This document shows positions 1 through 59,046 of a stretch of DNA of 64,000 nt, piece after piece. The position numbers and the translations under genes were made by a program. Each line of letters begins with the position of its first letter. The stretch's first letter is position 1. Below the pieces are notes generated by a model. It worked only from the letters and a program-made list of their open reading frames with translations, made no database searches and was not told where the DNA came from. Source of the DNA: Quercus robur (Eukaryota; Streptophyta; Magnoliopsida; Fagales; Fagaceae); assembly GCF_932294415.1 (NCBI RefSeq), contig NC_065538.1:81047834-81111833 (forward strand). Direction: 5' to 3'.

Positions 1-8365
<8,365 letters not shown>

Positions 8366-8544
8366 GGGCTAAACCTTAATTACAATTTTACTCAAATATT
8401 TTGTAGGTTTGATCAATTGGTTAAACAACAGGAACCAGATATGGGTCAGAAAACTGACTTCTTGATAAATCTAAGAATTTTCTATGAGGAAAAAAACAAA
8501 GAAGTTGGGAGAGGAGCTCATGATGTAAACACAAGCCGCCTGTA

Positions 8545-23623: not shown

Positions 23624-28018
<4,395 letters not shown>

Positions 28019-28115
28019 CTTTGTTCAAGTTAAAATGGAGGAGTTCTTTTAACGATAATATTAAAATCATAGTGTGTATCATATGGCTTCTGGGTTCAAC
28101 TTCTTGAGCTGGAAA

Positions 28116-34034: not shown

Positions 34035-42239
<8,205 letters not shown>

Positions 42240-42372
42240 TGTTCAGCCTGGGGATTTTCCTGTGAAAGCATTTGGGTTGGGATGTTGTATTTGGTTTCTT
42301 CTATGTTGTTGTTGTTGTTGTTGTTGAAGGCTTTTGGTTTTGTTGGATAGTTAGAAAAGAAAGCTGAACATA

Positions 42373-44117: not shown

Positions 44118-44125
44118 CAATACAT

Positions 44126-45649
44126 AATAATAATAATAATAATAATAAAATGAAATGTGACAAATCAAAAGAGAAAATATAGGAAATTAACCCATAGTAG
44201 GATATTTATAGTAAACAAAATTCTAGACTAGAGTTACAAGACTTGTAGTCCAAATACTATTAACGCTCTATTTGTTTTGTTGGAAAACTTTCTATAAAGA
44301 TAATTTTCCACATTTTCCAATTTTTGGTAGCATAAAAGAAAAAAAAAATCAGTCAACGGAAAACTACTTTTAGTTAATGGAAAACTCTAATAAAATTAAG
44401 GCTATTTTCTATTGCTTGTTTTCCAATAAAAATATTTGGAAAACAAACTCTCTCCCTCATAGCTCTTAACTACTATATATATTCTCTTTTGTTTGCCACG
44501 AGAAACAATATTGATTTGGTGCTCTTTCACTCTTTTTCACGATAAGCACTCACAAAATTGTTTTTCTTGCATACTAGGCGAAATTTCTTTGCTTATACAC
44601 TAGTAGGATTGGACGTGAGCCTTGACACCCTTGCCAATGAGTTCATTTGTACAAAACTTCCAGAGAATTCTTTAGAGCACCAGAGTTCTAGGTCATTGTA
44701 GACAAGGTTCATTCACATAAGAAGTTGGTGTAGAATAATTTAGAGTAGTGTTTATTAATTATTATACACAAACTATTTTACACACTCTCAAAAGCAATTG
44801 AAATCATGACTTGAAATTACTAATCTTTGCTTCTTCTTTTTAAAGAATGCCTTATAGGTACTATCATTTTTATTTTAGAATGTACATAGGGCACATGACT
44901 TTGTATTTTTTTTTTTTTTTTTTTTAAACTTTTGTGCCCATGTATCATTTTGTTTCATTTAAATAAAAATTTTAGATATTTTTCTTGCAATAAATTAAGT
45001 AGGGACTCTAAAAGTAAGCTCCTCATCTAGGTGATATTTATCTACAGTTTGAATCACTACATAAAATCCACAATCTACTAGATCATGGTTATCATAGCCA
45101 TCGAGGTATTGGTGGTAACTTTTTCGGGTGTCCATTGTGGGCAAGCAAGTGAATGGCAACATTTCTGGTTCCGGAGGTAGTGGATCAAATACCTTTGATG
45201 TGATAGCAGTTGTGGACAAACTTAATATTTTTGTCAATTTCAGGTAAAATCTCTTTTTGCTTTGTTTTAAGAGGGGCACATGTATGTACTATATAAATGG
45301 TCATTTTCAAATTTTGGAGTCGGTTTGGGCTAATTGTTTTTGTTTTTTTTTTGGGAGAGATCATGTGTGATCTTTATTGCCAAATTTTAAAACTCTTATT
45401 TTATTATATATATTATTAAAAAAAAAAATTTGGGTATTTGTTATTAGTATCGTCTTTAATTCTTCACAATTATATAATTTTCCCCCCTTTCAGTTTAATT
45501 CACTATGTGTGCTGGTTTGGTTTAACCATTTTTTTTTCATCATAAAAAAGAATGTACGTGTTTTTAAAAACTAAGTTTTTAATGTACAATTATACTTTTG
45601 TCTAATTTATTTTTGAAGTAAAATAAACCAAAATGAAAATAAGTTTTAT
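44126..45649 (+). repeat. Copy A of a 1.5-1.9-kb direct duplication
   Basis: From an AAT microsatellite (44126) to AAATAAGTTTTAT (45649), this segment matches 46176-48101 in the same order and strand with many substitutions and indels. Shared markers include AGAGTTACAAGACTTGTAGT, AGGATTGGACGTGAGCC-type sequence, and GTGTCCATTGTGGGCAAGC. A short plus-strand frame near 45127-45246 (VNGNISGSGGSGSNTFDVIA) reads protein-like but is broken in copy B. I do not recognise the parent. Confidence 0.75.
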
Positions 45650-46175
45650 CAAGCAAACACAAGAAGTTAACTTGTATGCAGTCTAAACTTGATGAAGTAA
45701 ATACCCAGCCAATCAGCTTGAAATATACGCTTGATGCCAGTTTTATGACAGTATGTTTAGTAGATTATAACAGGTATTATAATCTAATAGTTATTTTTAT
45801 GGTTTAGCTATTCAATAGTTTGATTATGTTTTTATTACAGAGAATAATTATTCTTTATGAATAATTATTTTTTTAAATGAGGAATAACTATTCATCTCTA
45901 AAAGGGATGTAATAATTATTCCTTAGTAAGTGTATTAATTTCTACAATTAATATATTTCTAAATAAATAAAATTTTCTACAATTAATATATTTCTAAATA
46001 AACAAAACTTTCTATATGCACATAAAAATTATGAAAATAAAAAATCATAAAAAATAGCTAATCTCTCTTTCGAATTTTAAAAAATATATCTTCACAAAGC
46101 ACTTTATGTTAAAAAAAAAAAAAAAAAAAACTAATTATGCTACCAAGTGAAAATAAATGGAAGAATTTCCCATTC

Positions 46176-46208
<33 letters not shown>

Positions 46209-46618
46209 TGAAACGAGACAAATCAAAAGAGAAAATATAGGAGATTAACTCTTGGTCTGACGACTTATGTTCATAACAAAAAAACCCTTAATTATTACAT
46301 CTTTACTATTAAAACAATGTGTTTTATTTTATAATGAACCCATAGTAGGATATTTATAGTAAACAAAACCCTAGATTAGAGTTACAAGACTTGTAGTCCA
46401 TATAATATTAGTGCTCTGTTTGTTTCACTGAAAACGCTCTATAAAGATAGTTTTACACATTTTACAGTATTTAGTAGCATAAAAAAAATCAGCCAACAGA
46501 AAACTATTTTTAGTTAATGGAAAACCCTAATTAATAAAAATAAAGTTTATTTTCTATTGCTTGTCTTCCAATAAAAAAATATTTGGAAAACAAGCTCTCT
46601 CTCTCACAGCTCTTAACT

Positions 46619-46651
<33 letters not shown>

Positions 46652-48101
46652 TCTTTTGTTTGCCGCTGGAAACAATATTGGTTTGGTTCTCTTTCACTCT
46701 TTCATGGTAAGCTCTCACAAATTTGTTTTTCTTGCATACTGGCAAAATTTCTTTGCTTATACACTGGTAGGATTGGATGTGAGCCTTGACACCTTTGCCA
46801 ATGAATTCATTTGTACAAAACTTCCAGAGAGTTCTTTAGAGCACTAGAGTTCTAGGTCATTGTAGACAAGGTTCATTCATATAAGAAGTTGGTGTAAAAT
46901 AATTCTAAGTAGTGTTTATTAATTATTATACACAAACTATTTTATACACTCTCAAAAGAAACTGAAATCATGACTTGAAGTTACGGTTTCTAAGTTGGAC
47001 AAATTAGGATTATAAGATTGTACAATCCCATAACCCGGATCGCCATTTTGATAACCTTTTGCCTAACACTTTTCCATCTCATAACTTTACCCATTTGAAC
47101 CAAAATTGCAAATGTAAACTAGGTTACTTATCTTTGCATTTTTGTTTTAAAGAATACCTTATAGTTACTATCATTTTTATTTTAGAATGTACATAGGGCA
47201 CATGACTTTGTATTTTTTTTTTTTTTTTTTTTTTTTAACTTTTGTGCCTATGTATCGTTTTGTTTCATTTAAATAAAAATTTTAGATATTTTTCTTGCAA
47301 TAAATTAAGTAGGGACTCTAAATGTAAACTCCTCATCTAGGTGATATTATCTACAGTTTGAATCACTACATAAAATGATAAAATCCACAATCTACTAGAT
47401 CATGGTTATCACTTATCATAGCCATCGAGGGCTTCTGGTGTCCATTGTGGGCAAGCTAGTGAATGGCAACACTTCTGGTTCTGGAGGTGGTAGATCAAAT
47501 ACCTTTGATTTTTTTTAAAATTTTTTTTTTAATTTTTTATGAATCAAATACCTTTGATGTGATAGCAGCTGTGGACAAACTTAATTAATATTTTTGTCAA
47601 TTTCAGGTCAAATCTCTTTGTTCTTTGTTTTAAGAGGGGCACATGTATGTGCTATATAAATGGTCATTTTCATATTTTGGGTTCGGTTTGGGCTAATTAT
47701 CTTTTTGTCTTTTTGTTTCTGTTTCTGTTTTGTTTTGTTTTTTTTTTTTTTTGGGGGGGGGGGGGGGGGGGTGGGGTGGGAGGGGATGGGGATGGGGATG
47801 GGGGATCATGTGTGATCTTTTTTTGCCAAATTTTAAAACTCTTATTATTTTTTTAATTATATATAAACATATTATTAAAAACAAAATTTTGGGTGTTTGT
47901 TATTCGTATCATCTGTTATTCTTCACAATTATATAATTTTTCCCCCTTTCAGTTTGTGCTGGTTTGGTTTAACCATTTTTTTTTTTTTCATCATAAAAAA
48001 GAATGTACATGTTTTTAAAAATTCAGTTTTTTAATGTACAATTATACTTTTGTCTAATTTATTTTTGAAGTAAAATAAACCAAAATAAAAATAAGTTTTA
48101 T
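46176..48101 (+). repeat. Copy B of a 1.5-1.9-kb direct duplication
   Basis: Homologous to 44126-45649 but longer. It carries an extra block near 46250-46320, about 130 bp at 46982-47120, and a small poly-T-rich insert near 47509-47540 bracketed by a repeat of ATCAAATACCTTTGAT. It also has an expanded TA run (46621-46648) and G-rich run (47752-47805). The many indels show the duplication is old. Confidence 0.75.
47752..47805 (+). repeat. G-rich run with quadruplex potential
   Basis: An uninterrupted G tract of about 18 bases (47752-47770) is followed by GGGGTGGGAGGGGATGGGG and two more GATGGGG units, giving well over four G-tracts within 55 bp. Copy A lacks it at the equivalent place, so the run expanded in copy B. 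Confidence 0.7.
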
Positions 48102-48257
48102 GAATAAAAATATAGAGATGCAAATTTTTTTACAAAAAAATTTACAAACTGCTAATATTGTGAGTGATTATTGGTAAATGAAAAAGTGATGTTAATGGTG
48201 GATTTAGATGAAAACTAATAAGAAGTTAGTCACATTAACAATTTGTAAAAATGTTAT

Positions 48258-48718
48258 TGATGGGATTGACGAAAACACGTTACCTTGACGAGGTCAACGT
48301 AATGACGAGGGTACCCCCTAATCACGAACAAGTCATCAACGACGAGGAAAGGAAGGTCATTCAATGATGCCAGCAAGTAACCTGGGCAGTTACGAAACCA
48401 GCCAAGCAGACCGTTGGAGACTAATAAAAGCCCCATAATTGGGCTTGAGGCGTTATGAAAGAAGGGCATTTACACTCCAACGGCTAGCAGTCAGGCTTAC
48501 AGATATAAAACTCTCACATTTGCAGCATAAGGTACGATACTAAGATTCTGAAAATATACTTCTTACTTTCTAGTTCTGCGAACAGCTTGATTGTTCTAAC
48601 TTTGGCATCGGAGACATTGTGGCAGGCACCACACCGGTGACCACCTTCCTTGAAGAGAACCAGGCGCTAGCAGGGAGTTCCATCTGCCTACTGAAACTGA
48701 CGATTTTGCACCTCATCA
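48258..48718 (+). repeat. 5' LTR of gypsy element
   Basis: 461 bp, TG...CA, followed within 4 bp by the primer binding site. The copy at 58581-59041 has the same length and differs by 10 transitions and 1 transversion. Confidence 0.95.
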
Positions 48719-48721
48719 GTT

Positions 48722-48739
48722 TGGCGCCGTCTGTGGGGA
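48722..48739 (+). promoter_or_regulatory. Primer binding site of gypsy element
   Basis: TGGCGCCGTCTGTGGGGA lies 3 bp after the 5' LTR. Its first nine bases match the complement of a plant tRNA-Asp 3' end (...ACGGCGCCA). The tRNA assignment is from general knowledge; the position is as expected for minus-strand priming. Confidence 0.7.
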
Positions 48740-51700
48740 CGATATTTTCAGATTCATATCTGAGAGCATAGTTCCCATCAACCCTCTACATTCAGATGGA
48801 ATCCAACCCAGACTCAGCAGCCTTGGCCCAGCAAGTCCAGGCCCTTGCAGCCACCATTGAAGAACTCACCAAACAGAACCAGGAAATGAAACTATGGCTT
48901 CAGCAAGTCCAACAGGCTCAACAGGAAGAGAACCGGTCCAAAGATAACTTGGAGGAAGAAGGAGATAGTCAACGGAGAGGAACCCTTCACAGACCAACTA
49001 CTCCTGACGAGCAAAACTCGGACCTCCTTCGAGAAATGAGGAAGGAAATGGACGAGCTGAGGAGCGCCATTAAAGAAAAGACAGACCGAAGCGTGGACAA
49101 AATGGTAAGAGCCACGGATTCACCCTTCACCGCCACGGTACTAGAATGCCCTGTGCCTTCAAAATTTCGCTTACCTTAGCTTGAGCCGTTCGACGGGCTA
49201 AAAGACCCCCAGGATCACCTTAATACCTTCAAGACAACTCTGAGACTTCAACAACCACCTGACGAAATACTGTGCCGTTCCTTCCCGACAACTCTCAAAG
49301 GAGCTGCGAGAGAATGGTTTACTAAGTTGCCAAACTCGTCCATAGACAATTTCAATCAGCTGAGTAGTGCCTTCTTGCGCCACTTCATAGGGGGACAACG
49401 CCCAAGGAGGCCAGTAGACTACTTACTCACCATAAGACAGGGAGAGAAGGAGACTCTGAGGTCATATGTCAAGCAATTCACCCGGGAAACTCTGGAAGTA
49501 GACGAAGCTGATGACAAGGTACAGCTGACGACCTTCAAAGCAGGATTGAGATCCAGAGACCTCGTGGCCTCTCTTGCAAAGAACCCCCCGAAGACGATGG
49601 CGGAGATGCTCCTGAAGGCACAAAAGTATATGAACGCGGAAGATGCCCTAGCTGCCATAAAAGATACCGAGAGGCCAGGAGACAAGGCCAAGAGGGAAGA
49701 CGACTGTAGGGGGCAAAAGAGAGACAGACCAGAACGTCGGAACAATGACGGGAATAGGAGGAAGGACGATAAAAATTCTCGGACGGTAAAATTTACTCCC
49801 TTGGTTATGCCTGTTGACAAGATTTTTACGCAGATCAAGGACGAGCACTATCTCAAATGGCCCAGACCATTACACTCATCCCCCAACGTACGTGACAAGA
49901 GCAAGTATTGCCGGTTCCATAGAGACCACGGCCACAACACAGAAGATTGCAGAGACTTGAAGGAGCAAATAGAGGAATTAATACGGAAAGGGAAGTTACA
50001 GAAGTATGTGAAGAAAGGAGAATATAGCAAGTTCAGAGATGACAACAGGACCCAGCGTGAATCCTTCACTCGAGATGACGACCATCCGTCCCAGCCTCCA
50101 CGCAAGGTGATCGGGGAGATAAACACGATAACAGGAGGACCATTCTCAGGAGGATCATTTAGATCACTCAAAAAAGCATACCATAGATAGGTGAACAGCG
50201 TCCATACCATGCCTCCGTCCAAGCACCGACGAACATGCCAAGACATGTCCTTCAGTGAAGGAGACGCCAGGGGAGTAAAGCAGCCCCACAACGATCCCCT
50301 GGTCATAATGCTGAATATAGAAGGGTTCAATACCAAAAGGATCCTCGTTGATAACGGGAGCTCAACGGATATCATCTACTTCCCAGCCTTCCAGCAGCTG
50401 AGATTAGATCCAAAAAGGTTTCGCCCTTTTGACTCTCCACTCGTCAGCTTTAGTGGAGACAGGGTCTACCCCAGGGATATAGTGACACTGACGGTGACGG
50501 CAGGGACCTACCCATTGCAGTTGACCAAACAAGTAGACTTCCTGGTGGTAGACTGCCCTTCATCCTACAATGTCATCATTGGGAGGCCCACCCTCAACAA
50601 ATGGAAGGCGGCGACGTCAACCTACTGTTTGAAGGTGAAATTCCCGACACTCAACGGCGTGGGTGAAGTGAAAGGTGATCAAGTCCTGGCAAGGGAATGC
50701 TATCAGGCCGTACTGGCAGGAAAGGAGAACCACACGTAGACGATTGAAGAAAAAGAGGAAGACGGGATGGAGACCTTGGAAACAGTGGAATTGGTAGAAG
50801 GAAATGCGGACAAGACGACCAAGATAGGGACGACGCTAAGCCCCGAGATGAGAACAAGACTCATAAAGTTCCTTAAGGGGAATCTGGATGTCTTTGCATG
50901 GAGTCACGAGGACATGCCGGGCATATCTCCAGAAGTCATCCAGCATAGGCTGAATGTGGACCCCAGCAGGAAGCCCGTTCAGCAACGACGAAGAACCTTC
51001 GCCCCAGAGCGAGATCAAGCGGTTACAGAGGAAGTAACCAAACTCTTGACGGCTGGATTCATCTGGGAAGTGTATTATCCTGAATGGCTCGCCAACGTCG
51101 TCCTGGTAAAGAAAGCGAACGGAAAATAGAGAATGTGTGTAGACTTCACCGATCTAAACAAAGCATGCCCAAAGGACATCTTCCCTCTACCAAGGATAGA
51201 CCAGCTCGTGGACTCCACCGCCGGACACAAGTTACTGACGTTCATGGACGCCTTCTCAGGGTACAACCAGATAAAGATGGTTGAAGAAGACCAGGAGAAG
51301 ACAGCCTTCATCACAAGTCAAGGACTCTATTGTTACAAGGTGATGCCTTTTGGGCTGAAAAATGCTGGAGCGATGTATCAGAGAATGGTAAACAAAATGT
51401 TCAGCCAACAGATTGGCAGGAACATGGAGGTGTACGTGGACGATATGCTCGTCAAGAGTAAGGAAGAGCTCACACATCTGGACGACTTGGAGGAAACTTT
51501 TGCAACCCTTAAAAAACACCAGATGAAGTTGAATCCAAGTAAATGTGTTTTTGGGGTAGCCTCGGGGAAGTTCTTGGGATTCATGGTGTCCCAAAGAGGA
51601 ATAGAAGCAAATCCAGAGAAAGTACGAGCTATCATTGACATGGCCTCACCCAAAACCGTCAAGGATGTTCAAAAACTCACGGGAAGAATAGCAGCTTTAA

Positions 51701-53585
51701 ACAGGTTCGTCTCTAGGGCCACAGACAAATGCCTGCCCTTTTTTAAGACATTGAAGCAGGCTTTTGCTTGGACTAACGAGTGCGAAACAGCGTTCCAAGA
51801 GCTGAAGCAATACCTGAGCAGTCCGCCTCTCCTAAGCCCGTCCAAAGAAGGAGAAAACCTATACCTGTACCTGGCGGTGTCAGCCTCGGCAGTAAGTGCA
51901 GCTCTGATTATAGAAGAGGACAAGAAGCAACTCCCGGTTTACTACGTCAGCCAAGCTTTCCAAGGGGCTGAGTCCAGATACCCAAGGATCGAAAAGATTG
52001 CGTTTGCACTAATAGTGGCCTCGCGCAAACTCAGGCAATATTTCCAGTCAAATCCTATTCTCGTAATGACGGACCAACCAATCAAGAAGTCAATGAGCAA
52101 GCTAGAAGCAGCAGGGAGAATGGTCCAGTGGGCAATTGAACTTAGTCAATTCGACATCGAGTACCATCCAAGAACGGCGATCAAGGCACAAGCTCTGGCA
52201 GACTTCATCGTAGAATTCACGTTCCCTGACGAAGACAGGAATACCGACGAAGTAGATAAACTAATAATACAGACTGATGGTTCGTCAACCCAAAAGAAGG
52301 GGGGAGTAGGGGCCGTCATAACCACCCCCGACGGAGAAGTGCTAAAATATGGTGTCCAACTAAAGTTCCTAGCCACCAACAACGAAGCTGAATACGAAGG
52401 AATACTGACGGGACTGAGGCTTGGAAAAGCTCTTGGTGCCAAAAACTTGTTGATCCAAAGTGATTCAAAGCTAGTGATTGGACAGATCAAGGGAGAATAC
52501 GAGGCAAAAGAAGAAAGGATGCAGAAGTACCTCAAGTTGGCAAGACAACTAGCTCAGGAATTCGATACAGTGGAGTTCATACAAATCCCAAGAAGTCAGA
52601 ATATGGGGGCTGACGAAGTGTCAAAGCTAGCGTCATCAAGAGAAGAAGGGACTAGCACGGACCTGGCGATGGAAGTCCAAAAACACCCTAGTATCGAGGA
52701 AGTTGCAACATTCACCATCTAGAGCACTGATACCTGGATGATGCCCATAATGTCCTTCCTCCAGGACGGGCACCTACCTCAAAACACTGAAGAAGCCAGA
52801 AAGATCAAGCAGAGGGCAGCCAGATTCACGATCCTGAATGACGTCTTGTACAAGAGAGGCTTCTCTATGCCCTACTTGAAGTGCGTCGATGAGGAAGAGG
52901 CCAAATACATCTTGGAGGAAGTACACGGAGGAATTTGTGGCGACCATGCCGGCTCCAAATCCCTAGTAAACAAAGTGGTAAGGGCAGGATATTTTTGGCC
53001 AACCATGCAGGTGGACGCTGCTGAGATCGTCAGGAGGTGCGACAAATGCCAACGATACGGGAATGTGCAGCGGCTTCCAGCAGAGAAAATGACGACCATA
53101 GCTTCCCCATGGCCGTTTGCACAATGGGGAATCGATATCGTTGGTCCTCTGCCCCAAGGTAAAGGTCAGGTAAAATTCCTTCTTGTTGCTATTGACTATT
53201 TCACAAAATGGGTTAAAGCAGAGACCCTAGCAACGATCACTGAGGCTCGGATCCAGAACTTTGTGTGGAAGAACATAATCTGCAGGTTCGGGATTCCTTC
53301 GACGATCATATCAGACAATGGAAGGCAGTTCGACAGTCAAGGCTTCAAGGAATTCTGCACAAACCTTGGGATCAAGAATCAGTTCTCATCCCCAAGGCAT
53401 CCTCAGGCAAACGGGCAGACGGAAGTGACGAACCGGACGCTGCTCAAGATTATCAAGACCAGACTGGACGATGCGAAAGGTGCCAGGCCAGAAGAACTAC
53501 CAAATGTCCTGTGGGCTTACAGAACCACCGCCAGAACCCCAATAGGAGAAACCCCCTTCAGGCTTACCTATGGTATAGAAGCAGT

Positions 53586-54556
53586 CAGTGGCGGAGCCAG
53601 GAATTTATGTTAGGGGGGGCAAGATTAAAAGACAAAATTAGAAATAAAAAATTAATCTAAAAAAATTAATCAATATTAATAACAAAATAAATAAACAACT
53701 ATATGATAATATAATTGTCATGTAGAATCTAACATAATATGTAAACTTTAATTTATTTTTTCACACCTAACTTATTTTACTCAATTGCCCTCAACGATTT
53801 TTTATATTTTGAAACCGCTGCATGATTTCTTCACACTTAATAGTTTTGAATATATCTTTCTCAATATATGTGACTAAGCAATCATTTATCCATTGATCTC
53901 CTATTTGATTGCGTAATCGATTTTTAATTATGTTCATTGCTGAAAAAGCTTTTTCAACAGTAGTTGTTGGCTTGTTGCAACTAGTAAGATCAATACCAAA
54001 GTCACTAATGAGTAAACCAATGAATATGAAACATTCTTTTTCATTTCTACCATCTTTTCAACAAACTGTCCAATTCCTCTAAATGCTGAAAACTCTTCAG
54101 TAAACTGCATATCGTGGATGTATGTCTCAAGTTGGTTATCCAAGAAAGAAACTTGAGACATAAAAAAATTCTAGGCTGTTTGGTCTAGTCCATCAAATTT
54201 ACTAAGTGGGACCCATTAATATTTTATATATAGAGAATTGTACTAGGAGTAGAAGTCTACTACTGCTGGGAAAGCTAGAAAGAAAGAAAAAGAATGGAAG
54301 AGCTTTTGTTTTGTTTTGTTTTTTTTTTTTAAGGAAGCTGTCTTTGCTTTCTACTTTTGTCGTTTGTTTGTAGCATGGACATGAGAACGCCATGTTGTAA
54401 CCGTTGAACCAGTTTTCTACTTTCACTTCGCTCTTTCAAGTGTGTTGGGAATGGGTGGCTTTTTTTTTTTGGGGGGGGGGGGGTGGGGTGGGCAAAACAT
54501 TTGAAATTTCAGGGGGGGCAGGTGCCCCCCCTCGCCCCCCCCTCCCTCCGCCCCTG
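53586..54556 (+). mobile_element. hAT-superfamily transposon nested in the integrase region
   Basis: 971 bp with ends CAGTGGCGGAGCCAGG and, in complement, CAGGGGCGGAGGGAGG, typical of Tip100-like hAT elements. The 8-bp duplication GAAGCAGT is at 53578-53585 and 54557-54564. The gag-pol frame resumes exactly after one copy of it, so this insertion is younger than the gypsy element. It has a T/G-rich run at 54461-54495 and C-rich right end. It is not autonomous: only a transposase C-terminal remnant is present. Confidence 0.92.
53791..54161 (-). pseudogene. hAT transposase C-terminal dimerisation remnant
   Basis: The minus-strand frame from 54161 carries FRGIGQFVEKMVEMKKN and a hydrophobic stretch. 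After a one-base frameshift near 53965 it continues as VEKAFSAMNIIKNRLRNQIG and WINDCLVTYIEKDIF, ending at TGA 53793-53791. This is the conserved C-terminal dimerisation motif of hAT transposases. The N-terminal and catalytic parts are absent, so it is an internally deleted derivative. Confidence 0.85.
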
Positions 54557-55049
54557 GAAGCAGTAATCCCAGTTGAAGTAGGGGTCACAAGCTTCCGGCA
54601 TGAAACTTTCAACAAAGAGGTCAATGACGACGAACTACGACTGAACCTAGATTGTCTGGACGAAGTAAGAGTCAACGCATCCAACAAGATGACGAAATAT
54701 CAAAGAAAGATGGCCGAATACTATGAAAAAAGGGTCAAACTGAGACGCCTGGACATAGGTGACCTCGTCCTATGCAGGACCACCATGGCAACTAAAGACC
54801 CTACCCAGGGAAAGCTAGGTCCTACGTGGGAAGGTCCCTACCGAGTCATTCACTACTCAAGACAAGGAAGTTATCACCTGGAAACCATGGACGGACAAAG
54901 GCTTCCTCGACCATGGAATATTGAGCATTTAAAAAAGTACCACCAGTAAATGTAATAGACAAAAGCAATCGTTCCTGAATTCAATGAAAATTTCTTATCC
55001 TTTGATGTCCTTATGCAGACAGATCCAGTCAATTGTAAGTCAAACTAAC

Positions 55050-55430
55050 AAGAGTCCACCTTGACGAGTGTATGTCACTGACGACAACACCAACGAATAT
55101 GAGAAAAAGGCTGAGTGATAAGATTCCGCCAAGACGGATGTAAATCACTAACGAAGTCCTAAGTGACGAGATTCCTTAATGGATGTGAGTCAAAAAAAAA
55201 AAAAAAAAAATTGGAAAAGGGCCAAGTGATAAGATTCCGCCAAGACGGATGTAAATCACTGACGAAGTCTTAAGTGACGAGATTCCTTAAAGGATGTAAG
55301 TCACCACAAAAAAAAAAGGGAAAGCGGCCAAGTGATAAGATTCCGCCGAGACAGATGTAAATCACTGACAAATCCCTAAGTGATAAGATTCCGCCGAGAC
55401 GGATGTAAATCACTGACGAAGGCACACGAG
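55050..55430 (+). repeat. Tandem repeats between pol and the antisense gene
   Basis: At least four full copies and several partial copies of a 45-50-bp unit: AGTGATAAGATTCCGCCAAG, then ACGGATGTAAATCACTGACG. Copies start near 55112, 55223, 55331 and 55378; alternate half-units read AGTGACGAGATTCCTTAA. GTGAT and ATCAC arms make each unit a potential hairpin. Poly-A tracts interrupt the array at 55191-55210 and 55309-55318. Such arrays are common in the untranslated part of large gypsy elements. Confidence 0.85.
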
Positions 55431-55852
55431 ACGTGCTGGAGAATGGCAAAGTCCCACTGAATGAAATAAGGGCACTGACGAACCTGAAAGGAAAAGAGAA
55501 AGAAGAAGAAGAAGGACAGAAACCCACAACAAGGATAAAAAAAAAAAAAAAAAAATGACGAGCAAATCACAAGGAATTTGCACTAAGTACCAACCAGATA
55601 CAAGGTACGCTAAGAAGTTTATGCTAAATCACGCACATGTGCACAAACATAGACAGTAGTGTAACCACAAAAGCAGGTAAACATTAAATCATAAAGAAGC
55701 CCAAAAACATAGGGCAATTATCCTTGTTCTCTTAACAGGGCCAAAAGATATTGTTCTGAAAATTGAAATAAAAACAAAAAATATGCATACATCTCCAAAA
55801 AAGGGCCTAAAACATAATGGGCAAATAATAAGTGATAAAATTTTTCTAAGGA

Positions 55853-58063
55853 TCAGGCTCGGGCGTCTGGAGCGTCAGTAACCGGGTCGTCAGCAGCAGA
55901 AGCATTCTCAGCATTAGGGACGTCGTCATTAGGAGCATCACCTTCAGGCGCAGAGGATTGGGCAGCCTCGTCAGCAGCCATCTCTTGATCCACCACTTCC
56001 AAGTCCAAATTCAGCAGATCAACCCCTGAAGGATGCTTGACGAGGTATCTACGGAGAAGTTCGAAACCCTTGAAGTACCAACTGAAGAGTACTGTGGAAT
56101 ACTCCTCAATTTGCTGAAAGGCCTCGACGGACCTAGCCGCAATCGTCTTCAGTTTTTCCTTCGCCGCCTGAAGCTGGTCGTCCTTCTCCAAATTCAGCTG
56201 ACGCTCAACCCTAAGATCAGAGTTTAAAGCCTTGACTTGCTCCTTCAAGGTTGCAGCCCCGTCCATGGACTGAATGAGGTCCTTTTTTAGTGCGGAATTC
56301 TCCTTTTCCAGAGCCTCCATCCTGGACGTCAATGAAGCCACCTTGGCCTTTTGAGTAAGATACTCAGAGGCAAGGTGAAGGCTCTCACCCAACACCTGAC
56401 GAAGGAAGATAAGTGCATCAATAAAAAAGGGGGAAAATTGATATGAGAAGAAACCAAGGAAAACGTGTGGACGACCTTACCTGTACAATTTTATGGACGT
56501 GCTAACCCGCAACCACGCTGACAGGCACTCCAGAAAAGACCCTAAGGTCCTCAGCCCTCACAATACTATGTGCCCGCTCCACAGCCGCCCCCTCGTCGTC
56601 AAAGATGGACGAACCAACCCTTTCCTTCTCTTTGTCCTTGGCAGACAATCTCGGCCTCTTCGACGACGGGGTAGGGATTTCCTCAACTGAAGTAGCTGGG
56701 GAAGCCACCCTAGCGCCTTCAACTCCTGAGACGATGGGAGTGGCATCCGTAGGGCAGACGACAGATGGCCCCTTCCCCGTAACGCGAATTACCTTCTTGC
56801 CAAGATTGGACAGGGGTTCATCCTTCTTGGCCCTCATCTTGGCGTACATGTCCTTATTAAACTTGGTCGTCATCTCTAAAAAAAAAAAAAAAAAACTAAG
56901 AAATCCAAAGTATGCGGGTAAAGGACAGTACTGACGAAGCAAACACTTACTCTTTTTCTCTTCAATGGTAATACTGCGCAGAACGTAAGGAGACGGATCC
57001 GGGCCTAAACAATAGAAAGAGAGTGTCTGCGGATCAAGAAGATCGTCCCAGCTCTCAATCGTCTTCGCGTATTCAGTCGCCTTCTAGACACGACCCCGGT
57101 ATTTGCTCTTCAACTTTGGGCATTTCTTAACTGTAAAAGAAAACGAGCAAGTGGTTAGTGACGACCAAACGTGCAAGACAGAAATAAACAGATAAGAAGA
57201 AACATGGACGCACCTAAGTTTGGGGTTCCCCACCGACGAAGCAACCTTGGGATATCACCCCAAGCCTCGCTAGAAGGGGTCTCAAAGTCATCCCCGGACA
57301 CGAAAATGAAACGTGACTTCCAGTACCTGAATGACGAGGCTAAACCCTTAATGATTCTATTCCCCCTCGTCCAAGGAACTAGTTCATAATATCCATACTC
57401 CTTTGATTCCTTCAAACGGTAGATATGGACGAGCTCACTTACTTTGATCATGTCCTCATTGGCCGCTAGCCAGATCTCCATACAATTAATAACTATCCTC
57501 CAGGAGTTAGGCATAAGCTGCCCGGGGGCAATGCCAAAGTAATCCAGGAGCTCCATCACAAAAGGATGGATGAGTAACCTAAGTCCTGAAGTGAAAGCGG
57601 CCTCGTAGAAACACACTTCACCAGGAAAGAAATGACAAGCCCGATCATCAGGACCAGGCTGACGAACGCGAACCCGTGCAGGGAATTGAAACCTATCCTT
57701 AAACCTGGCCACTGTATTAGCGTCCAGCCCACACTCTTCGTTGAGAGCGTAAAAAGCCCTAACCTGACGAGGGATAGAAACGGCTGTATCACCCTCGACC
57801 GGGCCGCCGCTAGACGACAACCCAGTGTCTAACTCACTGGATCTCACCTCAGACATCCTCTTCGTCTCTCTCTCAAACCAAGCCAATGACCGACCCAAAA
57901 TCGGAGATAGCTCCCCTAAAACCACACTCAAACCACTACCTTCAAAGAGATAATCCCCAATCAAAGGAAAAAAGTCCCCAGAAACACCCAAAGCCGCCCC
58001 TAAGCGAGCAAAAAAGAAAGAAACTGAGGGGCAAGCTTCCCAAACCTCAGAGGAATCAACCAT
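55853..58063 (-). pseudogene. Spliced antisense gene inside gypsy element (putative gypsy-type transposon protein), two TAG stops
   Basis: Four minus-strand exons, 58063-57214, 57130-56951, 56875-56481 and 56395-55853, join through GT-AG introns with matching phases into 656 codons including the stop. Exon 1 has a conserved globular region (FYALNEECGLDANTVARFKD, FYEAAF, GLRLLIHPF, NSWRI), resembling the plant family labelled putative gypsy-type transposon (PF04195, from memory). Exon 3 is basic. Exon 4 is a long coiled coil (EALEKENSALKKDL) with an acidic Ala/Asp-rich end. In-frame stops lie at 57086-57084 in exon 2 and 56504-56502 in exon 3, both TAG. An antisense gene here is known in some Tat-lineage elements; its role is unknown. 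Its transcript would not overlap gag-pol unless it ran past the repeats. Confidence 0.85.
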
Positions 58064-58570
58064 GAAAAGGGATACCCAATCCTAAACGCCCAAACACAAA
58101 AACAACAAAAATAAAAAGACAAAGGGAAAATCAGGAATTTATAAAGAAGTTCATGAAGAAAAAAATCTGAGAAATCGAAGGGATAGCGTACCTTAAAAGG
58201 AAGAACAGTCGAGGCCGGAGAAATTGGTTGCCGGAGCAAGGTCGAAGTCACCGGAATAAGAACGGAATGATGGCAGAAACGAAACAAAAGGAACAAATGC
58301 TCGGAGTAGGAAGAGAAAGAAAAACCAGAGTGAAAGAAAGGAAAAGTTTTTTTGAACCCAAAAACCCAAAGAAACTGAAAAGCAACGGGAAACCCAAGGG
58401 TCATGCCATTAATACCCTCAATCAGCATATGCCATGTGGCCACGTCCCATACCGCGCCGCCATCCCTCATTAAATTCGAAACGAAACCCCAAGCGTCACA
58501 AACAACTCGAAGAACGAAACTTTTCACCTTCTATGACCCTCATGACACGTCACTGACGACCACAGAACTT

Positions 58571-58580
58571 GGGGGGCAAC
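58571..58580 (+). promoter_or_regulatory. Polypurine tract of gypsy element
   Basis: GGGGGGCAAC immediately precedes the 3' LTR, preceded by ACTT. Its position and G-run fit the plus-strand primer, although the last four bases (CAAC) are not all purine. Confidence 0.6.
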
Positions 58581-59041
58581 TGATGGGATTGACGAAAACA
58601 CGTTACCTTGACGAGGTCAACGTAATGACGAGGGTACCCCCTAATGACGAACAAGTCATCAACGACGAGGAAAGGAAGGTCATTCAATGATGCCAGCAAG
58701 TAGCCTGGGCAGTTACGAAACCAACCAAGCAAACTGTTAAAGACTAATAAAAGCCCCATAATTGGGCTTGAGGCGTTATGAAAGAAGGGCATTTACACTC
58801 CAACGGCTAGCAGTTAGGCTTACAGATATAAAACTCTCACATTTGCAGCATAAGGTACGATATTAAGATTCTGAAAATATACTTCTTACTTTCTAGTTCT
58901 GCGAACAGCTTGATTGTTCTAACTTTGGCATCGGAGACGTTGTGGCAGACACCACACCGGTGACCACCTTCCTTGAAGAGAACCAGGCGCTAGCAGGGAG
59001 TTCCATCTGCCTACTGAAACTGACGATTTTGCACCTCATCA
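58581..59041 (+). repeat. 3' LTR of gypsy element
   Basis: 461 bp, TG...CA, followed by the GTTAT target duplication (59042-59046). Aligned by eye to the 5' LTR it has 11 differences, ten of them C/T or G/A. Confidence 0.95.
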
Positions 59042-59046
59042 GTTAT

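What the first reader, a model, noticed from the sequence alone, without database searches (positions are those of the whole stretch)
48796..58063. Every premature stop in both genes of the gypsy element is TAG
Seven in-frame stops break the two genes: 49177, 50188, 50737, 51127 and 52720 in sense gag-pol, and 57086-57084 and 56504-56502 in the antisense gene. All are TAG; no TAA, TGA or frameshift occurs across more than 2,200 codons, apart from the hAT insertion. If the three stop codons were equally likely, seven of seven TAG would be about 1 in 2,000. CAG-to-TAG is a C-to-T change in a CHG context, the plant-specific methylation context kept by CMT3-type enzymes on transposons. The other route, TGG-to-TAG, also fits cytosine deamination on the opposite strand; 51127 looks like this type from its RT context. 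Ten of the 11 LTR differences are transitions too. The element seems to be dying by methylation-driven deamination, which leaves a readable stop-codon fingerprint.
Basis: partly seen in the sequence, partly recalled or inferred. Interest (0 to 1): 0.75.

Follow-up and report, generated by a model that had tools for sequence, protein, structure and literature searches.

The report
Methylation-type decay of a plant retrotransposon
A plant jumping gene is broken by seven premature stops that are all TAG; comparison with sister copies in the same genome points to the ordinary wearing-away of methylated cytosines, which favours TAG, plus some luck, and not to a special code or a strict rule.

Summary
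All seven premature stops in the two genes of this 10.8-kb Retand-type Ty3/gypsy element are TAG, with no frameshift. From this element's codons TAG takes 0.41 of one-step nonsense changes and 0.48 of C-to-T ones.

The host genome could be searched, so I read 12 sibling copies. Their premature stops are 35 TAG, 13 TAA and 12 TGA of 60. TAG is enriched in this sample but is not the rule. Private changes (882 in 13 copies) are 599 C-to-T. The rate per site is 4.9% in CG, 4.3% in CHG and 1.6% in CHH, as expected if methylated cytosine deaminates. CG is hit as hard as CHG, so the process is not CHG-specific. Measured rates predict 55% TAG; 7 of 7 in one copy then has p = 0.016, and TAG share does not differ significantly between copies (p = 0.16).

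At none of the seven sites do more than one of the 10-12 siblings read carry a stop: the copy decayed individually. The mechanism is supported in kind and already described for plant transposons (PMC7385966, PMC3567156; passages). The "TAG fingerprint" is a bias, not a signature.

The parts
48253..48257 (.). target-site duplication GTTAT (left); right copy at 59042-59046
48258..48718 (+). 5' LTR (461 bp, TGATG..CATCA)
48796..53585 (+). gag-pol up to the hAT-like insertion: gag, protease region (by position only, no Pfam hit), RT, RNase H, a second RNase H-like domain (RVT_3), integrase; five in-frame TAG (49177, 50188, 50737, 51127, 52720)
53586..54556 (.). hAT-like insertion, 971 bp, 8-bp duplication GAAGCAGT at 53578-53585 and 54557-54564 (the name hAT rests on the 8-bp duplication and end sequences; no transposase was found or sought)
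54572..54949 (+). end of pol after the insertion, natural stop TAA
55096..55421 (.). short tandem repeats between pol and the antisense gene
   Evidence: self-comparison
55853..58063 (-). antisense gene with Transposase_28 (TRP28) domain, four exons by my model; TAG at 57086-57084 and 56504-56502, natural stop TGA
58581..59041 (+). 3' LTR (461 bp), 11 differences from the 5' LTR

Best explanation
This is one copy of a many-copy Retand-type Ty3/gypsy retrotransposon family. Since a single insertion (intact target duplication) it has decayed mainly by C-to-T changes at sites that plants methylate (CG and CHG about three times CHH), seen on both strands. Because CAG codons are common, CGA codons are rare and CAA codons sit in the slower CHH context, such decay makes TAG the commonest new stop (about 55-58%). 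Seven of seven in this copy is that bias plus sampling luck and selection of a striking case. Shown: the stops, the stop spectrum of 12 siblings and the context dependence. Inferred: that methylation, rather than another cause with the same contexts, drives it, and that most of the window copy's private changes came after insertion.
For: Seven TAG and no frameshift. Intact target duplication and 2.4% LTR divergence. At 5 of the 7 stops none of the siblings read has a stop; the other two are shared with one sibling each (10-12 siblings read per site). Sibling stops: TAG 35, TAA 13, TGA 12 of 60. Test of TAG share against 1/3 gives p = 9e-5, against 0.415 p = 0.012, against 0.48 p = 0.12, against 0.58 p = 1.0, against 0.66 p = 0.22. 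By distinct site, CHG C-to-T routes to TAG 30 against CAA-to-TAA 5, with 53 and 41 majority CAG and CAA codons, binomial p = 0.0004, Fisher p = 0.002. Private changes: 599 of 882 C-to-T, CG 143/2921, CHG 165/3806, CHH 291/18585. A local duplication (44.1-48.1 kb; direction of change unknown there) shows the same tendency, CG+CHG against CHH p = 4e-5. The stop number fits neutral decay: 3.4 expected over 2,042 codons by the LTR clock, 3.8-4.6 over all coding sequence, 7 seen, P(n>=7) 0.09-0.18.
Against: In the window copy alone neither LTR contexts (CHG against CHH p = 0.39, CG+CHG against CHH p = 0.50) nor private changes (CHG against CHH p = 0.11, CG against CHH p = 0.12) show the effect significantly. 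Trinucleotide rates for CAG and CAA differ only 1.6-fold (0.0385 and 0.0235), less than the stop counts suggest. Seven of seven stays somewhat improbable under the measured rates (p = 0.016). A decayed FAR1/MULE-like gene in the same window has 4 TGA, 2 TAA and 1 TAG by my reading; 7/7 against 1/7 gives p = 0.005, so TAG is not a local rule, and the element's excess over that gene is not fully explained; its frame assignment is approximate and its codons differ. There is a weak strand asymmetry, G-to-A 310/11680 against C-to-T 289/13643, p = 0.006. No methylation data.
Confidence: 0.86

Rival explanations
1. Pure chance: substitutions without any context bias happened to give seven TAG.
For: TAG is already the largest class of one-step nonsense routes (393 of 947). 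Only seven events. A flat C-to-T share of 0.48 is not rejected by the 60 sibling stops (p = 0.12).
Against: P(7/7) = 0.002 under uniform substitution. Sibling TAG share exceeds 0.415 (p = 0.012), and context rates differ strongly.
Confidence: 0.05
2. The TAG codons are read through: a recoded or leaky UAG used by the element to make its proteins.
For: All stops are one codon. One (50188) lies between the gag domain and the RT. A plant retroelement with stop suppression exists (SIRE1, seen only as a reference title).
Against: At 7 of 7 sites at least 11 of 12 (or 10 of 10) siblings read have no stop. The six bases after the seven stops match the leaky-context motif CARYYA (recalled, from no call) in 0 of 7. 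Siblings carry TAA and TGA as well. One stop lies at the edge of the RT domain and two in the antisense gene.
Confidence: 0.01
3. An enzymatic cytosine deaminase or RIP-like process hypermutated the element, not slow decay of methylated cytosines.
For: C-to-T excess (599 of 882 private changes); weak strand asymmetry.
Against: The window copy has 44 C-to-T among 70 private changes over 4,562 sites, not a burst, and 21 against 23 on the two strands. Preference follows CG and CHG, the plant methylation contexts.
Confidence: 0.03
4. Some copies (this one 7/7, one sibling 9/9, one 8/9 TAG) decayed under CHG-dominated methylation while others did not.
For: Per-copy stop tables. The 9/9 and 8/9 copies have CHG rates of 0.059 and 0.086 against CHH 0.015 and 0.021.
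Against: Heterogeneity of TAG share over 42 private stop sites is not significant (p = 0.16). The window copy's CHG rate is ordinary, 10/297.
Confidence: 0.1

Closest known systems
Retand lineage of plant Ty3/gypsy (Tat clade) retrotransposons, e.g. Grande, RIRE2, Cinful, Retand (PMC11963269: abstract and passages seen; PMC6317226: passages seen)
   Same: Ty3/gypsy domain order with the extra RNase H between RNase H and integrase (shared with Ogre), long pol-3'LTR region with tandem repeats, antisense gene encoding Transposase_28/TRP28
   Different: This copy is broken: seven TAG and a hAT-like insertion. Its antisense gene reads best as four exons; a search of the text of PMC11963269 gave 0 occurrences of 'intron' and 2 of 'splic', of which one shown was in a reference title
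Decay of plant transposons by deamination of methylated cytosine (PMC7385966 and PMC3567156, passages seen; mutation-accumulation data PMC8145854, passages seen)
   Same: C-to-T dominated; faster in CG and CHG; affects individual silent copies
   Different: Here it is seen through stop-codon identity. None of the titles and abstract starts listed uses TAG share as the readout (searches listed nothing; open-licence library only, listings seen)

Membership tests
Retand lineage (Ty3/gypsy, Tat) | gag, RT, RNase H and integrase in Ty3/gypsy order (integrase after RNase H) | tested here: met
   Pfam hits in order; best solved relative Ty3 RT 4ol8
Retand lineage (Ty3/gypsy, Tat) | additional RNase H between RNase H and integrase (shared with Ogre) | tested here: met
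   RT_RNaseH at 243-341 and RVT_3 at 382-500 of the same segment, integrase in the next; criterion from PMC6317226
Retand lineage (Ty3/gypsy, Tat) | antisense Transposase_28 gene between pol and the 3' LTR | tested here: met
   PF04195, E = 8.9e-9, minus strand; criterion from PMC11963269
Retand lineage (Ty3/gypsy, Tat) | pol-3'LTR region of 2,933-6,566 bp | tested here: met
   54950-58580 = 3,631 bp (range)
Retand lineage (Ty3/gypsy, Tat) | placement in the RT tree | not tested
   no tree was built; no named plant reference elements were fetched
5-methylcytosine deamination decay | excess of C-to-T among derived changes | tested here: met
   599 of 882 private changes
5-methylcytosine deamination decay | faster C-to-T in CG and CHG than in CHH | tested here: met
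   siblings only: CG 135/2695, CHG 155/3509, CHH 265/17123; p about 5e-23 (CHG) and 3e-25 (CG). Not significant in the window copy alone
5-methylcytosine deamination decay | no strand bias | tested here: inconclusive
   weak G-to-A excess, p = 0.006 pooled; window copy 21 against 23
5-methylcytosine deamination decay | measured methylation of the element | not testable with these tools
   no bisulfite or long-read methylation data held
   CG and CHG not different (p = 0.28); 25 of 60 sibling stops are TAA or TGA

The most novel reading that the evidence does not exclude
Copies of one family differ in how strongly CHG methylation, relative to CG and CHH, drives their decay, so that some copies (this one, and siblings with 9/9 and 8/9) die almost only by TAG; stop identity would then be a fossil record of which methylation pathway silenced each copy.
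Probability: 0.08. Interest if true: 0.55.

Novelty: new member of a known kind. Interest (0 to 1): 0.28.

Why it matters
It shows from sequence alone that this plant family decays with C-to-T changes about three times faster at CG and CHG than at CHH. It also gives a corrected expectation (about 55-58% TAG, not one third) against which stop-codon identity in dead plant transposons should be judged. By inference such context bias also matters when LTR differences are used as a clock. The underlying process is already known.

Tried and rejected
Relatives were sought first in viral contigs (one weak locus, L001, not used) and genome contigs (none). The 200 kb fetched around the window (100 kb each side) hold no match to the element's LTR, coding pieces or RT and integrase proteins at E 1e-8. 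A readthrough or recoded-UAG reading was rejected. A chance-only reading is disfavoured. A FAR1/MULE-like pseudogene in the window served as a local comparator; its stops are mixed, but its frame is uncertain and its codon content differs, so I give it little weight. The absence of frameshifts looked odd against the indel share in Arabidopsis mutation-accumulation lines (8 indels to 31 SNVs in control lines, PMC8145854, passage; P of no frameshift 0.001 at an indel share of 0.1). But 4 of 12 siblings also show no frameshifting indel in the stretch compared, so it is not special to this copy; why indels are so few in the family is not explained.

Limits of the counts: the 12 siblings come from 40 scored LTR matches out of 1,041 first-look candidates, chosen because two LTR matches lay about 8-10 kb apart; they favour intact, close copies. 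gag-pol was compared over 48796-52955 and the antisense gene over 55853-58063; the pol 3' end was not compared. Sibling B was compared only to 52300 in gag-pol and sibling F has a large deletion. The two insert calls of sibling B near 52253 are, I think, artefacts of its truncated end. Private-change counts drop columns where the other copies disagree or fewer than 8 are read, so repeatedly hit CG or CHG sites are under-counted. At stop sites the assumed earlier codon was the commonest one-step codon seen in other copies, not a proven ancestor; 3 of 57 distinct site-and-type entries had none. In the earlier nine-sibling count, which used only the majority codon, 13 of 41 entries were unresolved and one of the window's seven with them.
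Full report
What it is. The region 48258-59041 is a Ty3/gypsy LTR retrotransposon flanked by the duplication GTTAT. Its two 461-bp LTRs differ at 11 sites, 10 of them transitions, with no gaps. The sense strand carries gag, RT, RNase H, a second RNase H-like domain and integrase; the best solved relative of its RT is Ty3 RT, 4ol8. The minus strand carries a gene with the Transposase_28 domain, readable as four exons with GT..AG introns. With the tandem repeats before that gene and 3.6 kb between pol and the 3' LTR, this matches the Retand lineage as described in PMC11963269 (abstract and passages seen) and PMC6317226 (passages seen). The extra RNase H position is shared with Ogre elements; RT tree placement was not tested. 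A 971-bp hAT-like insert with an 8-bp duplication splits pol.

The observation. All seven named stops are TAG, and no other premature stop or frameshift is present in the 2,380 codons counted. The natural stops are TAA and TGA.

Is it more than chance? One-step nonsense routes from this element's codons are 393 TAG, 337 TAA and 217 TGA; C-to-T routes are 86, 51 and 42. P(7/7 TAG) is 0.002 for uniform substitution, 0.006 for flat C-to-T, and 0.02-0.08 for the weighted C-to-T settings tried. The number of stops is not unusual: 3.8-4.6 expected from the LTR clock over the coding sequence, P(n>=7) 0.09-0.18.

Siblings. The own genome (786 Mb) gave 1,041 first-look LTR candidates, of which 40 were scored, and 2,315 first-look coding candidates, of which 40 were scored, all matching at 90-100% identity (the 100% one is the window copy). 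I read 12 sibling elements, chosen because two LTR matches lay about 8-10 kb apart, and projected them onto the window copy (6-10% different in gag-pol). At five of the seven stops none of the siblings read has a stop; at the other two exactly one sibling each has a stop (10-12 siblings read per site). The stops are therefore decay of this copy, or recurrent hits, and not a family trait. All 12 siblings carry premature stops of their own in the stretch read, 2 to 9 each.

Stop spectrum. The 12 siblings have 60 premature stops: 35 TAG, 13 TAA, 12 TGA; stops shared by copies are counted in each. The TAG share of 0.58 rejects one third (p = 9e-5) and 0.415 (p = 0.012), and fits 0.58 (p = 1.0); flat C-to-T, 0.48, is not rejected (p = 0.12). 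Counting each site and stop type once over all 13 copies (57 entries), C-to-T in CHG giving TAG occurs 30 times and CAA-to-TAA 5 times, with 53 and 41 such majority codons (p = 0.0004); 4 entries are CG routes to TGA, 7 are CHH routes to TAG or TGA, 8 are transversions and 3 have no one-step codon. The window's seven are 5 CHG and 2 CHH routes. I give these only in aggregate. Counting only stop sites private to one copy, the siblings have 21 TAG of 37. Two other copies are almost pure TAG (9/9 and 8/9), but TAG share over the 42 private stop sites does not differ significantly between copies (p = 0.16; chance that some copy with six or more private stops is all TAG 0.09).

Context. Changes private to one copy, where at least eight others are read and agree, number 882 in 13 copies: 599 C-to-T, 142 T-to-C, 141 transversions. 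C-to-T per site is CG 143/2921, CHG 165/3806, CHH 291/18585. In the 12 siblings alone CHG against CHH gives p = 5e-23, CG against CHH 3e-25 and CG against CHG 0.28. CCG outer cytosines (0.049) are as mutable as CTG (0.046) and CAG (0.039); CAA is 0.024. The window copy alone gives CG 8/226, CHG 10/297 and CHH 26/1462, in the same direction but not significant (p = 0.12 and 0.11). Its LTRs give CG 2, CHG 3 and CHH 5, not significant. Strand counts are 289/13643 C-to-T against 310/11680 G-to-A (p = 0.006), and 21 against 23 in the window copy, so there is no strong strand bias. A separate repeat in the window (44.1-48.1 kb) has the same CG+CHG excess among transitions, direction unknown (p = 4e-5).

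Reading. With the rates measured in siblings, 55.5% of new stops should be TAG and 7 of 7 has p = 0.016. Since the case was picked out because it looked striking, I take it as the family's moderate bias plus luck. [quoted passage not shown] in its control lines significant for CG and CHG, p = 0.08 for CHH). It is wrong in two details: CHG is not special over CG, and TAG-only is not a family signature. Methylation was not measured; that step is inferred.

Noticed in passing
18729-16600 (minus strand): Decayed FAR1/MULE-transposase-like gene (FAR1 and MULE Pfam domains) with mixed stops (by my reading 4 TGA, 2 TAA, 1 TAG) and apparent frameshifts.
   Followed up: partly
44119-48101: Direct duplication, 85-93% identical in segments, immediately left of the retrotransposon; beyond these two copies a search with 46600-47600 found only short matches of about 100 bases or less (20 candidates scored).
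   Followed up: partly
6947-8368, 26732-28024, 40713-42242 (minus strand): Cluster of S-locus lectin receptor-kinase-like gene parts (B_lectin, S_locus_glycop, PAN_2) at lower window coordinates than the element.
   Followed up: no
55853-58063 (minus strand): The antisense TRP28 gene reads best as four exons with GT..AG introns; length differences between siblings fall mostly in introns 2 and 3, which supports the splice model.
   Followed up: partly
48796-52955 and 55853-58063, 13 copies: Within CHH, CAA, CTT, CAT and CTA mutate at 1.8-2.4%, CAC and CTC at 1.3-1.5%, CCA, CCC and CCT at 1.0-1.2%.
   Followed up: no
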